NCBI GenBank assembly: GCA_020725645.1
Contig: DYEQ01000002.1
Coordinates: 1 to 56,343 of the forward strand
Origin: Candidatus Fermentithermobacillaceae bacterium
Lineage (GTDB): Bacteria > Bacillota > Sulfobacillia > Fermentithermobacillales > DUSS01
DNA: 56,343 nt
Direction: 5' to 3'
Made by a program: the position numbers and the translations under genes. Below, piece by piece: positions 5,979 through 16,586 of the stretch. Position 1 is the first letter of the stretch. Every line of letters begins with the position of its first letter. The notes beneath the pieces were generated by a model that worked only from the letters and a program-made list of their open reading frames with translations, was not told where the DNA came from and searched no databases.

Positions 5979-6701
5979 GTGGGTTCCAGAAGACAAGTCA
6001 TTTTCGGTCTTATCCTGGTCGCTTTGGGCATAGTCTGGCTGTTAAACAACGTGGGCGTAATATCGGTGACCATCGGCTACATCGTGAGCACGTACTGGCC
6101 AGTGCTCTTCATCATCTGGGGGCTTGACCTGCTGATCGAAGGAAGCAGGCGGACGGGAAGCGGCCGCCGGAGCGACTTCGCCAACGCCGGAGTCCTCCTA
6201 ATTATAGGCGTTCTCTTGCTTCTCCGGACGACGGATCTTTATTACTTCGACTGGTCAGTCATATGGAAAGCTCTCCTTCCAATTCTCCTCATCCTCATCG
6301 GATGGAACCTGGTATCGAGCGGGACTTTCCCCGGCGGGACACACTGGGCCATTATGAGCGGCGTCGAACGGAAGCAAAGGGGATGGAAGCTGGAAAGCGG
6401 GAGCTTCGCCGCTGTCTTGGGTTCTGTCGAGATTGACGCCACGGTCGCGGATATCCCAGAAGGAGAGATCAGATTGGACCTGTTCGCCCTCATGGGTGCT
6501 GTGGAGCTTATCGTACCGGCGGATGTCGCGGTCGAGTGCCGGGGTACGGCGGTCCTGGGCGGAATCGAGTTCTTCAGAGAGGACGCTGGAGGTATCGTCG
6601 CCAGCATCGACAGCACCTTCCCCGGCGCTCCCGGTTCTACAAAGAAGCTGGTGATTGCCGCGCGGGCGGTTATGGGCGGAGTGGACATAAAGCGCGGCTG
6701 A
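5979..6701 (+). CDS. LiaF-like membrane protein (DUF5668-type transmembrane N-terminus, LiaF C-terminal domain)
   Basis: A 240-residue protein. The first half has about four short hydrophobic segments typical of LiaF/YvqF-like proteins, beginning QVIFGLILVALGIVWLLNN, followed by a WPVLFIIWGLDLL helix and two more near LLIIGVLLLLR and LLPILLILIGWNL. The second half is the soluble beta-rich LiaF C-terminal domain, with repeated strands such as VLGSVEIDATVADIPEG, LMGAVELIVPADVAVE and TAVLGGIEFF. In other Bacillota such proteins restrain a cell-envelope stress kinase; no kinase is next to this gene, so the target is unknown. GTG at 5979 is chosen because AAAGGAGG ends eight bases before it. A strong terminator follows at 6756, so the gene is probably monocistronic. 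Confidence 0.85.
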   Translation: MGSRRQVIFGLILVALGIVWLLNNVGVISVTIGYIVSTYWPVLFIIWGLDLLIEGSRRTGSGRRSDFANAGVLLIIGVLLLLRTTDLYYFDWSVIWKALLPILLILIGWNLVSSGTFPGGTHWAIMSGVERKQRGWKLESGSFAAVLGSVEIDATVADIPEGEIRLDLFALMGAVELIVPADVAVECRGTAVLGGIEFFREDAGGIVASIDSTFPGAPGSTKKLVIAARAVMGGVDIKRG

Positions 6702-12101: not shown

Positions 12102-13463
12102 TCAGTTGCAGTTGCCCTGGTCATCTGCCCTCGTTTTCCGCCTTCCCAAGTAGCTTTGGTACCTCAGCTCTTTGCGAAGCTCTGATGCATAACTCATGTC
12201 GCCGAGAGGTCGGTGGGGCTCCGTCCGGGAAAGCAAGGATTCGAGGTTCCGGACCTCGGAAACGATATCCGGATCCGGTCTCGTTTCCGCGAGTTTCTGC
12301 AGAGTATCGAGCCTCTCCTGAAGGATGCTGCGGCTCTCTTCCCAATTACCGTTGTCTAGCGCCGTCACAGCGCGGTCCTTCGCCACAGCGGTACGCGTTA
12401 GCTCCACGACCTTTGTAATGGTGATGTCGGGTTGATATAATTCATCGGGACCTTCGGCCACGGGCAGAGAGACCGATACTCCTATGTTCACCGAATCCAG
12501 ACGACGCAAATTATCGGCGTAATCTACGGTCACGCCGAAGATGTCGGGCCGGCCGTGGGGCAGGGGAGGGAGGAAGATTTCTACGACGAGAATCCGCTTT
12601 TCGTTTTCGTACATATCGGGTAGATTCAAGACCACCGCCTCGGCGGTCGAGCCCGGCACGACTTGCTGCTCGTATCCGATTATCCCGGCGATCTTACCTG
12701 CTTCCGACCGGAGTGTCACCCTCACGTCCTGTGCCGTTGTTTTTAAAAGACCGCGTAGTTCCTTGGCGAAAACGGCCGGGATTTCATCGGCGTTTTTCAC
12801 ATAATAGTAGTTTCCGCGACCAGCTTCACACATGGCGATCAGCAGGTCCTCGTTGAACTCCCGGCCCACACCTACCGCGGACACCGATAGGCCCTTTTCC
12901 GCCACACTTTTCGCCTTCGCGGCCAAAAGCGCGGGGTCGGTAATCCCTACATTGGCCATTCCATCGGTAAGAAGGACGACCCTGTTGGATTGACCTGAAC
13001 GGGTCTCCTTCATCACTTCCTGACATCCTCGGAGGAATCCCCCGGATAGGTTTGTGCTGCCTCCTGACTGTATTCCGTCTATTAGGGATCTAACGAGCTC
13101 TTTTTTGGTGACCCCGGTTTGCGGAACGATGGTTTCGACCTGGTCATCGAATATCGTCAGGGAAAACCTGTCTTTCGGCCCCATGTGGTCCACGACGAAC
13201 CGGGCAGCTTTCTTTACGTACTCTAGGGGTTTGCCGCTCATGGAACCGCTTCTATCCAGGACAAGCCCGATGTTGATGGGAAGTCTTTTCTTTTTCCCGC
13301 AAGGTGCGGGCGGTGCCTCCAGTTCTATCAACGCCCAGAGGGTTTCCGGAGTATGCGGTGGAATCAAAGCGTGACTCAGCCGGACATTTAAGGTGAGCGA
13401 ACTCAATCTTCCATCTTTGCCCGTTGTGTTTCGGCGCTGGCGCGGGTTTGCCGGTTTTTTCAC
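12102..13463 (-). CDS. VWA domain protein (Ca-activated chloride channel-like/YfbK-like)
   Basis: A 453-residue protein with a complete von Willebrand A domain in its first half. The metal-ion site is intact: DRSGSMSG (DxSxS), the Thr in GGSTNLSGG, and the Asp in LLTDGMANVG. The second half is a beta-rich region (strands such as DVRVTLRSEAGK, VVLNLPDMYENEKRILVVEIF) followed by a helical tail with many Arg and Glu. There is no signal peptide or membrane helix, so it should be cytoplasmic, where stand-alone VWA proteins bind partner proteins. No MoxR ATPase neighbour is present. GTG at 13463 is chosen: GGGAGG lies seven bases upstream; longer in-frame starts at 13523 and 13478 lack a good site. 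The large repeat array begins 180 bases upstream of this start. Confidence 0.85.
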   Translation of the reverse strand: MKKPANPRQRRNTTGKDGRLSSLTLNVRLSHALIPPHTPETLWALIELEAPPAPCGKKKRLPINIGLVLDRSGSMSGKPLEYVKKAARFVVDHMGPKDRFSLTIFDDQVETIVPQTGVTKKELVRSLIDGIQSGGSTNLSGGFLRGCQEVMKETRSGQSNRVVLLTDGMANVGITDPALLAAKAKSVAEKGLSVSAVGVGREFNEDLLIAMCEAGRGNYYYVKNADEIPAVFAKELRGLLKTTAQDVRVTLRSEAGKIAGIIGYEQQVVPGSTAEAVVLNLPDMYENEKRILVVEIFLPPLPHGRPDIFGVTVDYADNLRRLDSVNIGVSVSLPVAEGPDELYQPDITITKVVELTRTAVAKDRAVTALDNGNWEESRSILQERLDTLQKLAETRPDPDIVSEVRNLESLLSRTEPHRPLGDMSYASELRKELRYQSYLGRRKTRADDQGNCN

Positions 13464-13642
13464 AAGTATCCCTCCCATTCTGGAACCAGAAAAACCGCTT
13501 TCGGACAGCGAGGGCCCTGCCACCCTATCAAACGGTTCACCTATATATTCCGAAGCGGGGCACGAAATTGGTCAAATCGCGAAAGCAGCCGGAGAGATGT
13601 TTTTGAGATGAGTCATGCTGACTTCCCGCTTCGAATTTTCAG

Positions 13643-14125
13643 AGTGCCAACTAGGTTTGCACTGCGGCAGGTTTTGAAGTGCCCAGTGGTAACTAGGTTT
13701 GCACTGGCGCGGTTTACGGGGTGCCCGGTGCCAGCGTGGTTTGCACTGGGGTAGGTTTTGGAGTCCTCAGTGCCAACGAGGTTTGCACTGGCGGGTTCTT
13801 TGGGTTATACAGTGCCAACGTCGTTCGCACTGTGGTAGGCTCTGGAGTCCCCAGTTGCAACTAGGTTTGCACTGGCGGATCTCTTGGCCCACACGGTGCC
13901 AACGTAGTTGGCACTACCGCACGGTTTTCGGCCCTCAGTGCGAACCAGGTTTGCACTGGCGTAGTTTTTGGGGTATCCGGTGCCAACGTGGTTTGCATTA
14001 TGTTAGGTTTTGGAGTGCTCGGTGTCAACCAGGTTTGCACTGGCGCGCTCTTTGGGCTACGCAGTGCCACCGCAGTTTGCACTAGCCGTAGGTTCTCAGT
14101 ACTCAGCGCCAACGAGCTTGGCACC
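13643..14125. repeat. Twelve tandem 42-bp units with a 21-bp imperfect palindrome core
   Basis: Twelve cores start at 13643, 13685, 13727, 13769, 13811, 13853, 13895, 13937, 13979, 14021, 14063 and 14105, that is, every 42 bases without a single slip. Each core is 21 bp: left arm AGTGCCAAC, three central bases, right arm (G)GTTTGCACT; nearly all arm positions pair. Linkers are also 21 bp and alternate between two types, one like GGTAGGTTTTGGAGTCCTC and one like GGCG..TCTTTGGGTTATAC, so an 84-bp double unit is visible. The copies differ at many linker and some core positions, but length is fixed. The array lies between the VWA gene and the winged-helix/nuclease gene and is not coding. Forty-two bases equals about four helical turns, so all palindromes face the same side of the DNA. 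Confidence 0.95.
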
Positions 14126-14244
14126 AAGACTTTCTTCGGTTACTCGTTCGACCGGTACCCATCAGACTGTGATTAGAGCAGTTCTCGTTATTCTGGTAAT
14201 GAAGCGATATGGAAAGTTGGTACAGTAAATCTGACCGGGCGCGA

Positions 14245-14344
14245 GATGACGTCGGGTATGTTGAGATGGCTTCAGGTATGTCGAGATTGCCTCAGGTATC
14301 CTGGGATGACCTCAGGCATCTGGGGATGAGCTCAGGTATATTAG
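14245..14344. repeat. Five tandem 20-bp repeats
   Basis: Five consecutive 20-bp units (14245, 14265, 14285, 14305, 14325) of the form GATGnCnTCAGGTATnTnGn. They lie immediately after the stop codon of the winged-helix/nuclease gene (which is read on the other strand and ends at 14346). The unit is unrelated to the 42-bp repeat. No hairpin is obvious within a unit except CTCAGG/CCTGAG-type partial symmetry. Confidence 0.9.
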
Positions 14345-14345
14345 T

Positions 14346-15122
14346 CTATTGGTCATCGGTTACCACGTTCTTACGTTTGGCTAGTTCTCGCGCACGACGC
14401 TTCCTGCAGTTTGCCACGTATTCCCCGCAGATATCCTCCAGAGTGCGTACGTAGAGGCAATCAGGGTGGTAATTGGCCTTAGGGAGTCTTTCTGGAATCT
14501 TCTTGCTCATTTTCTCGAGGCTAAGGTCGTCTTCTGTAACGTTGACCAAGATTATGTTGCGGCTATCGCTCAGGTCGGCCTTCATTTTGTCTCTTTGCAT
14601 TATTTCGTCAACTTCTTCCGCGTCCCGGAAAATCTCTGTGGTTCCATAATGTTGCGGGCCGTTGAACTCAAATGCTACACCTGCAGTCGCGTAGAACCTG
14701 TCGTACTCCATGAATTGGTTGGTATTGGGGTTTTGAAGAAACCAGGGACGAGCGTTGTCAACGTAATCGTCGGAATCCACAAGCACGTCTAACAGGCGCT
14801 TCATAAGATATTCTCCCACGGCTGCTGCGTAGGAGCGGTGCTCTTTAAGCCGAGCGATCATGGTTCGTTGAGTCTTCTCCGGAACAGAGGGAGTTATCCT
14901 CCTGAGGTTACGTTTGCCTCCGACTTTTGCCCAGCCGGCCTGCGCCAGCTCATTAACAAGGTATCGTACGGCTTCCCTGCTCAGGCCGGAGGCAGCGCTC
15001 AATTGCCTCATGGAACAGGTGTTGTAAAGTGATATGATCAGATAGAGAGACTTAGCCAAAGCGGAAAGTTCTTCATCCGACACAAGGTCCGAAGGAATTT
15101 GAACAAATAGGCGGTTAGGCAC
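14346..15122 (-). CDS. Winged-helix protein with a DUF559/Vsr-like PD-(D/E)XK nuclease-fold domain
   Basis: A 258-residue protein. Residues about 12-75 look like a winged helix-turn-helix (LYLIISLYNTCSMRQLSAA, SGLSREAVRYLVNELAQAGW). The C-terminal half carries the pattern of DUF559-type endonuclease folds: MEYDRFYATAGVAFEFNGPQ, in which the Asp, the Glu of FEFNG and the following Gln-His are the usual active-site line, then QRDKMKADLSDSRNIILVNV, a helix and strand ending the fold. So it can bind DNA and may cut it. GTG at 15122 is chosen: GGGAGG is six bases upstream, while an ATG at 15128 touches that site. It stands alone; on its 3' side are two different tandem repeat arrays, which makes a functional link possible but unproven. 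Confidence 0.75.
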   Translation of the reverse strand: MPNRLFVQIPSDLVSDEELSALAKSLYLIISLYNTCSMRQLSAASGLSREAVRYLVNELAQAGWAKVGGKRNLRRITPSVPEKTQRTMIARLKEHRSYAAAVGEYLMKRLLDVLVDSDDYVDNARPWFLQNPNTNQFMEYDRFYATAGVAFEFNGPQHYGTTEIFRDAEEVDEIMQRDKMKADLSDSRNIILVNVTEDDLSLEKMSKKIPERLPKANYHPDCLYVRTLEDICGEYVANCRKRRARELAKRKNVVTDDQ

Positions 15123-15368
15123 AGACATCCTCCCAAAAGCAACACGATCTACCATATATTACCACATGGTCGCAAGGTGGTTCAATAATCTCCGAAGAGG
15201 TTCCCGTCGGAAGTTGTCACGCCCAAGGGGACCTTGTCTGAAGGAGCCAGGAGCTTGCCAAACCCACCGGGCTTCCCCGCGGGACTTGTAATATAATCTG
15301 TCTGGAGCGCTTCCATACGGTTCGTAGGCGGTCTCTCGTATTAAACTCTAGGGGAGAGTGAGTAAGCC

Positions 15369-16586
15369 GTGATGGAAGTCCTTCTTCTCTGGATGACTTA
15401 TTTCTCTTGGGTTTACTGGGTCTTGGCGTGCTGGGCAGTACGGACTTTCTTCAAGCCGGACAGGAAATCTGAGGGGGACATTTCAAGTAGCTACGCTCCG
15501 CCTGTGTCCATTCTGAAGCCCGTGTGCGGACTCGACCACCGCGCCTTTGAGAATTTCGCGAGTTTTTGCCGGCAGGATTACCCCGACTTCGAGATCATCT
15601 TCGGCGTAGCGTCTCGTTCCGACCCCGCGGTCCGCATCATCCGGGGCTTGCAGCGGACCTTTCCCGAGCGAAGGATAAAACTCGTTGTGGGCAGGCCGCT
15701 TGGAGCTAACCAGAAGATCAGCCTCCTCTCCTATATGGAGCGGGAAGCCAGTCACGACGTTCTCGTGCTTAGCGACAGCGATATAAGGGTGGGGCCCGAC
15801 TATTTGCGACGGGTGGTTGCCCCGTTAGCCGAACCAGATGTCGGTTTGGTGACATGCCCGTATCGCGGCGAAGACGCCATTTCGTTGCCTGCGAAGATGG
15901 AGGCTCTCCACATGAGCGTGATCTTCCTTCCCTCCGTCATAATCGCGTGGAAACTGGGGCTTTCGTTCGCCCTCGGAGCAACCGTCGTCGTCAGGCGCCG
16001 CGATCTCATGCGAATCGGGGGGTTCCGGGCCATCGCGGATTACCTTGCCGACGATTTCCAGCTGGGCTCCCGCATCGCGACCCTGGGGCTCAAGACGATG
16101 CTTTCGAATTACGTTACGGTAAGCGTTCTCGGTCGCACGACATTCACGGACCAGTGGAACAGGGAGGTTCGGTGGGCCAGATGTAACCGGGTGAGCCGGC
16201 CCCGGGAGTATCCCGGCATCCTTCTCACTTTATCTACTCCTCTTGCGGGAGCCTTTGCTCTGGTCAGCGGCTTTTCTCCCCAGAGCCAGCAGATTCTCCT
16301 GTTGTCCCTGATCTTAAGGTTGGCTTCCGCCTGGCTCGTTTCAGAGTATGCCGGGGACCAGGAGGGACGAAAGTACCTGTTGTTGCTTCCCCTTCGGGAG
16401 ATACTGAGTTCCTTGGTCTGGTTGGCGGGCCTCGTCGGCAGACGTATTGTGTGGAGGGGCCGGGAGTATATCCTGGAGGAACACGGGAAAATGGTGGCCT
16501 GTTCGTGGGCGTCCGGTCTGGATGCCGGCGAGGAGGTGGAGCCGAGCGTTGCGGGGACCGATCGCAGCGGTGGTACTGCGAATTGA
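15369..16586 (+). CDS. Family 2/21 glycosyltransferase, ceramide glucosyltransferase/HpnI-like, membrane-bound
   Basis: A 405-residue membrane glycosyltransferase. An N-terminal helix (residues 4-24) is followed by the catalytic domain: VSILKPVCGLD, DYPDFEIIFGVAS, the sugar-nucleotide DSDIRV motif, then GATVVVRRRDLMRIGGF, DYLADDFQLG, and the acceptor motif REVRWARCNR (R-W variant of Q/RxxRW). Hydrophobic helices close the protein. Relatives transfer glucose or N-acetylglucosamine to lipid acceptors such as ceramide or hopanoids; the acceptor here is unknown. Start is GTG at 15369 or ATG at 15372, behind GGGGAGAG. A TATAAT-like box at 15292-15297 may be part of its promoter. It overlaps the YkoP-like gene, so the two are translationally coupled. 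Confidence 0.88.
   Translation: MMEVLLLWMTYFSWVYWVLACWAVRTFFKPDRKSEGDISSSYAPPVSILKPVCGLDHRAFENFASFCRQDYPDFEIIFGVASRSDPAVRIIRGLQRTFPERRIKLVVGRPLGANQKISLLSYMEREASHDVLVLSDSDIRVGPDYLRRVVAPLAEPDVGLVTCPYRGEDAISLPAKMEALHMSVIFLPSVIIAWKLGLSFALGATVVVRRRDLMRIGGFRAIADYLADDFQLGSRIATLGLKTMLSNYVTVSVLGRTTFTDQWNREVRWARCNRVSRPREYPGILLTLSTPLAGAFALVSGFSPQSQQILLLSLILRLASAWLVSEYAGDQEGRKYLLLLPLREILSSLVWLAGLVGRRIVWRGREYILEEHGKMVACSWASGLDAGEEVEPSVAGTDRSGGTAN

What the first reader, a model, noticed from the sequence alone, without database searches (positions are those of the whole stretch)
13643..14125. Twelve 21-bp palindromes at an exact 42-bp period, all on one face of the helix
The core starts recur every 42 bases twelve times with no insertion or deletion, though the sequence has drifted by many substitutions. 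Selection on spacing but not on exact sequence is what a cooperatively bound protein array would produce; 42 bp is about four turns of B-DNA. Linkers alternate in two types, giving an 84-bp double unit. Possible roles: a partition or segregation site, a chromosome-organising site, a binding platform for the neighbouring winged-helix protein, or a decoy array. It is noncoding: stop codons (TAG in the core itself) break the frames.
Basis: partly seen in the sequence, partly recalled or inferred. Interest (0 to 1): 0.8.

Follow-up and report, generated by a model that had tools for sequence, protein, structure and literature searches.

The report
Nuclease gene with private palindrome arrays
The evenly spaced palindromes are one of about seven copies in this genome of a DNA-site array that probably belongs to the neighbouring gene, a DNA-binding protein fused to a homing-endonuclease-like domain; relatives carry the same kind of gene beside arrays with entirely different palindromes, which suggests an undescribed two-part genetic system.

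Summary
In detail: twelve 21-bp imperfect palindromes at an exact 42-bp step, 13643-14125. Seven such arrays exist in this 2.1-Mb genome and eight in a sister species (G002), in intergenic positions that are conserved where checked. In a second sister (G001) the winged-helix gene survives only as a 77-bp remnant, the arrays are deleted at the three sites checked, and only one core is left genome-wide. The neighbouring protein (14346-15155, -) is a MarR-like winged helix fused to a Vsr/phage-homing-endonuclease-type domain. Homologues across Fermentithermobacillales/Limnochordia often have a palindromic array alongside (10 of 23 loci by a strict scan, 13-17-fold enriched), each with a different core and mostly 31-32-bp (three-turn) steps. 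The same core recurs in orphan arrays elsewhere in the same genome. Paired arms do not covary and carry a constant mismatch, so these look like protein sites on duplex DNA, not hairpins. Best reading: the arrays are the private binding sites of the adjacent protein, and the pair forms a self-maintaining, probably selfish, dispersed system. It resembles REP/RAYT in logic, but with an unrelated enzyme and helically phased arrays. Binding and cleavage are inferred, not shown. No published description was found in the library searched.

The parts
13643..14125 (+). Array of twelve 21-bp palindromic cores (AGTGCCAAC-N3-GTTTGCACT) at exact 42-bp steps; linkers alternate in two types (84-bp double unit)
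14126..14345 (.). Spacer between array and gene; about 60 bp next to the array, and the gene's 3' end, recur at 80% identity beside the C14 array of the same genome
14242..14341 (.). Five degenerate copies of a 20-bp repeat (GAGATGACcTCAGGTATcT) inside the spacer; one copy beside the C14 array
14346..15155 (-). Gene for a 269-aa winged-helix + Vsr/homing-endonuclease-like protein, the presumed binder of the array; dN/dS 0.15 against G002
14886..15068 (-). Winged-helix DNA-binding domain (about residues 30-90; MarR/HTH_24/HTH_36-like; recognition helix variable in the family)
14538..14819 (-). Nuclease-like domain (about residues 113-206; invariant D152, E163, Q168, H169, D189, K192)
12102..13523 (-). 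Left boundary gene (VWA-type protein by reading of its sequence), orthologous and syntenic in G001 and G002
15369..16586 (+). Right boundary gene (glycosyltransferase by reading of its sequence), orthologous and syntenic in G001 and G002

Best explanation
The array is a set of double-stranded binding sites for the adjacent protein. A dimer reads each palindrome through its winged helices; sites a whole number of helical turns apart (four here, three in most relatives) put successive dimers on one face so that they can bind side by side. The fused Vsr/homing-endonuclease-like domain is thus concentrated on the array. Gene and arrays form a self-maintaining, probably selfish, dispersed system: nicking or cutting at arrays and repair would expand and homogenise them and occasionally copy them elsewhere, and without the protein the arrays are deleted. 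Shown by comparison: gene-array association, private cores, orphan arrays with the same core, loss of gene and arrays together in one sister, no hairpin constraint, fast linker turnover with conserved cores. Inferred: binding, cooperativity, cleavage, the copying route and selfishness.
For: Synteny: VWA - array - gene - glycosyltransferase is shared with G002. Joint loss: G001, nearer to G000 (88.7% nucleotide identity against 84.1%), keeps a 77-bp gene remnant at the locus, has the array deleted there and at the C99 and C14 sites, and one core in its genome against 26 and 34 forward matches in G000 and G002. Other members: arrays beside homologues with other cores, 13-17-fold enriched within 700 bp of the gene against beyond 1.5 kb. 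Orphan arrays with the same core elsewhere in G007 and G028; a core found beside one gene (L071) also forms an array on another contig of that genome. No arm covariation and a constant mismatch. Linkers: within-array best match 0.49-0.71, mostly above 0.55, orthologous arrays 0.55, others about 0.50. Nuclease domain: 25/25 members match PHROG homing endonucleases, best 1.4e-12, and BFVD viral nuclease folds at E 3e-8. Array flank plus gene 3' end duplicated at C14. Broken family copies are common.
Against: No binding or cleavage is shown. Arrays keep the same places in two species (flanks 80-90% identical), so recent mobility is low for a mobile element. No insertion footprint was found: the G001 sites are plain deletions that remove extra flanking DNA. 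Thirteen of 23 close homologues show no array by the strict scan (three of these show one by direct-repeat or TRF scan; several flanks are truncated), and none of 37 more distant ones does. dN/dS 0.15 also fits a useful host gene. One array type steps by 29.5 bp, which is not whole turns. The joint loss rests on a single lineage.
Confidence: 0.55

Rival explanations
1. Host-useful nucleoprotein sites: the protein coats the arrays to organise or segregate the chromosome, like ParR/parC, TubR/tubC or a nucleoid protein; the nuclease-like domain is kept for structure or regulation.
For: Helical phasing, 9-22 sites per complete array, fixed intergenic places in two species, conserved cores; winged-helix fold matches include TrmBL2 and the centromere-binding AspA, weakly; dN/dS 0.15.
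Against: Lost outright in G001; several paralogues with different cores in one genome; nuclease residues invariant; arrays not at dnaA in G007 (409-869 kb away) and not on the dnaA contigs of G000 or G002; three arrays within about 43 kb in G002.
Confidence: 0.2
2. Defence or addiction nuclease: the arrays hold or silence a nuclease that otherwise attacks invading or array-free DNA.
For: Restriction-, Vsr- and homing-type nuclease fold; several specificities per genome; gene and arrays lost together.
Against: No significant PADLOC match for the window protein and only weak winged-helix matches in other members; no methylase or other defence genes seen beside the window gene; seven separate arrays seem redundant for titration.
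Confidence: 0.12
3. Transcription control: the arrays are operators through which the protein regulates neighbouring genes.
For: MarR-like winged helix; the window array starts 120 bp upstream of the VWA gene start.
Against: Neighbours are unrelated housekeeping genes and at least three arrays lie between convergent genes; 9-22 sites per complete array is excessive for an operator; the arrays were lost in G001 while the neighbouring genes stayed.
Confidence: 0.08
4. An ordinary satellite or MITE-like family that lies beside the gene by chance.
For: Higher-order repeats and internal homogenisation are typical of tandem satellites.
Against: Strong enrichment beside homologues with unrelated cores; joint loss; palindromic cores much more conserved than linkers.
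Confidence: 0.05

Closest known systems
REP/BIME repeats and their RAYT transposases (PMC2817692)
   Same: A gene with cognate palindromes at its side and dispersed in the genome; palindrome abundance follows presence of the gene; several gene-palindrome pairs coexist; palindromes intergenic
   Different: No HUH/Y1 transposase: the protein is a winged helix plus Vsr/homing-nuclease-type domain; few long head-to-tail arrays with fixed helical spacing instead of about 100 or more scattered singlets and BIMEs; array on one side of the gene; places conserved between species
EDxHD/Vsr-like phage homing endonucleases (I-Bth0305I type, reviewed in PMC3943268)
   Same: Nuclease-domain relationship by PHROG profiles and fold; nuclease tethered to DNA-binding elements; dimeric use of a long DNA target is reported for I-Bth0305I
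   Different: Chromosomal gene without intron; N-terminal MarR-like winged helix; linked to arrays of palindromes rather than a single cleavage site in a conserved gene
Centromere arrays (ParR/parC, TubR/tubC, AspA) and iterons (from general knowledge, not tested beyond fold search)
   Same: Phased repeats beside the gene of a small DNA-binding protein
   Different: No motor NTPase or replication gene alongside; many chromosomal arrays; nuclease domain

Membership tests
REP/RAYT | HUH/Y1 (IS200/IS605-type) transposase domain in the associated protein | tested here: not met
   No Y1 transposase match among 25 members in the Pfam tables returned; model and PHROGs point to a Vsr/homing-nuclease fold
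REP/RAYT | Gene flanked by two palindromes in inverted orientation | tested here: not met
   In the window and in G002 the array lies on the 3' side only
REP/RAYT | Palindrome abundance depends on presence of the cognate gene | tested here: met
   G000 and G002 with gene and arrays, G001 without; works like, in one lineage
EDxHD/Vsr-like homing endonuclease | Homology of the catalytic domain | tested here: met
   PHROG homing endonuclease phrog_9084 in 25/25 members, best 1.4e-12; BFVD homing and VSR endonuclease folds; PDB Vsr only weak, E 0.2
EDxHD/Vsr-like homing endonuclease | Literal EDxHD catalytic motif | tested here: inconclusive
   D152, E163, Q168, H169, D189, K192 are invariant, but they were not placed on the I-Bth0305I active site; that paper is not held
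EDxHD/Vsr-like homing endonuclease | Site-specific cleavage that copies the gene into a vacant allele | not testable with these tools
   Needs biochemistry
Partition (parS/parC/tubC) system | Adjacent ParA, ParM or TubZ NTPase gene | tested here: not met
   Window neighbours are a VWA protein and a glycosyltransferase (by sequence reading)
Partition (parS/parC/tubC) system | Chromosomal sites clustered near the origin | tested here: not met
   In G007 dnaA is at 1.443 Mb, arrays at 1.008, 1.034 and 2.312 Mb
CRISPR array | Identical repeats with unique spacers and cas genes | tested here: not met
   Degenerate repeats and related alternating linkers; no cas gene was recognised among the window ORFs at 8-20 kb (by sequence reading)

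The most novel reading that the evidence does not exclude
A new class of two-part genetic system in Limnochordia: homing-endonuclease-derived winged-helix proteins, each with its own palindrome maintained as helically phased arrays at several chromosomal places, evolving new core specificities as paralogues split.
Probability: 0.5. Interest if true: 0.85.

Novelty: categorically new. Interest (0 to 1): 0.78.

Why it matters
It would be a second, independent solution to what REP/RAYT elements do (a protein and its own dispersed palindromes), built on a nuclease-type domain instead of a transposase. It also offers a natural series of protein-site pairs with diverging specificity and spacing (three or four turns), useful for studying recognition-helix evolution and cooperative arrays.

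Tried and rejected
Viral contigs: one scan with the protein found no relative. RNA or DNA hairpin: rejected because arm pairing equals the shuffled expectation and position 6/16 is mismatched in most units. Coding repeat: rejected by 41/43-bp steps in sister arrays. Origin or terminus site: disfavoured by dnaA positions. A 45-bp repeat beside L091 may be coding and was not counted. Full-length Foldseek against PDB matched mainly winged-helix regulators, none below E 1e-3; PDB sequence search of the nuclease domain gave nothing. Structure jobs: both used. Literature: no description found in eight open-access full-text searches.

Full report
What is there. The window carries twelve 21-bp imperfect palindromes at exactly 42-bp steps (13643-14125), with alternating linkers that make 84- and 168-bp higher-order units. 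The core is strongly enriched in the genome (68/51 matches against 1/2 for the reversed control). There are seven arrays in the genome: C14, C19, C46, C70 (this one), C99, C105 and one that is probably split between the end of C43 and the start of C10. The sister species G002 has eight.

Site architecture. Over 214 units the cores average 1.25 bits per column and the linkers 0.28; the nine arm pairs are paired no more often than in shuffles, and pair 6/16 is a C.T mismatch in most units. That is the signature of two half-sites read by a dimer on duplex DNA, not of a hairpin. Of 198 steps 186 are 41-43 bp; the others up to 130 bp cluster near whole turns, weakly tested on 11 steps.

The neighbour. 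The gene at 14346-15155 (-) encodes a MarR/HTH_36-like winged helix fused to a domain with invariant D152, E163, Q168, H169, D189 and K192. All 25 aligned members match the PHROG homing endonuclease family phrog_9084, best 1.4e-12. The AlphaFold model of the domain (pLDDT 92) matches viral homing, VSR and restriction-type endonuclease models (best E 3e-8) and, only weakly, the Vsr structure 1cw0. Pfam gives only a weak DUF2726 match in a few members and NCBIfam only weak regulator matches. The nuclease core is more conserved than the recognition helix (mean entropy 1.62 against 2.25 bits), and dN/dS against G002 is 0.15.

Link between gene and arrays. (a) Synteny: the order VWA gene - array - this gene - glycosyltransferase is shared with G002, and three other arrays also have orthologous places there (C99, C14, C43/C10). 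(b) Joint loss: G001 is nearer to G000 than G002 is (88.7% against 84.1%), yet has neither an array nor an intact gene at the sites checked; 77 bp of the gene's interior remain at the locus, and the C99 and C14 sites are deleted. The whole G001 genome has one core match at up to one mismatch. (c) In G000 the array's 3' flank and the last 39 or so codons of the gene also occur beside the C14 array at 80% identity, so array and gene have been copied together.

The wider family. Homologues occur in 20 of 41 genomes examined (the window's own included), often several per genome and often broken, and in Limnochordia generally (which names Candidatus Fermentithermobacillus and relatives). Many have a palindromic array beside the gene with a core unrelated to ours, for instance CTGGTC-N6-GACCAG (L066), GACTGCCGGGCAGTC (L074), CTGTNCC..GGNACAG (L071), TGCGGGAATTCTCCGC (L058). 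Steps are mostly 31-32 bp; one array has 29.5. Palindromic arrays are 13-17 times more frequent within 700 bp of such genes than beyond 1.5 kb in the same loci; 10 of 23 close homologues have one by the strict scan, against 0 of 37 distant ones. Orphan arrays with the same core lie elsewhere in the complete genome G007 (1.008 and 2.312 Mb, besides the gene locus at 1.034 Mb) and in G028.

Array turnover. Linkers within an array resemble each other more (best match 0.49-0.71, mostly above 0.55) than those of orthologous arrays in G002 (0.55), which are hardly above unrelated arrays (0.50), although flanking DNA is 80-90% identical. Arrays therefore seem to homogenise internally while cores and spacing are kept.

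Interpretation. The array is most likely bound by the neighbouring protein, and gene plus arrays form a self-maintaining dispersed system. I favour a selfish origin (nuclease fold, many paralogues and broken copies, patchy presence, clean loss, duplication of array with gene end) over a host chromosome-organising role (fixed places, purifying selection). Binding, cooperativity and cleavage are inferences. It works like REP/RAYT in logic (PMC2817692) but fails that family's defining features, and no description was found in the open-access library searched; subscription journals are mostly not held.

Noticed in passing
window 14242-14341: Five degenerate 20-bp repeats (GAGATGACcTCAGGTATcT) between array and gene; one copy beside the C14 array.
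   Followed up: partly
L163 1-7900 (G007 C1 start): Long run of repeats with about 66-bp period and a constant motif (reads FEPTYEGWK / LSLPMRDG in translation), probably a CRISPR array, at the start of the complete Fermentithermobacillus chromosome record.
   Followed up: no
L017 2435-2601 (G002 C8): Twelve tandem copies of a 14-bp unit CTAAACTTGAGGTT close to the palindrome array.
   Followed up: no
L100 and L103 about 6430-6590: Homologues with 24-bp tandem repeats inside the gene, apparently lengthening the protein between its parts.
   Followed up: no
L119-L122: Weak matches of the nuclease domain in Lokiarchaeota contigs (E 4e-12 to 6e-4 relative to the candidate stretches).
   Followed up: no
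L141 about 7957 (G001 C49): A single intact core, the only one left in G001, with no array around it and no homology to the array loci fetched.
   Followed up: partly
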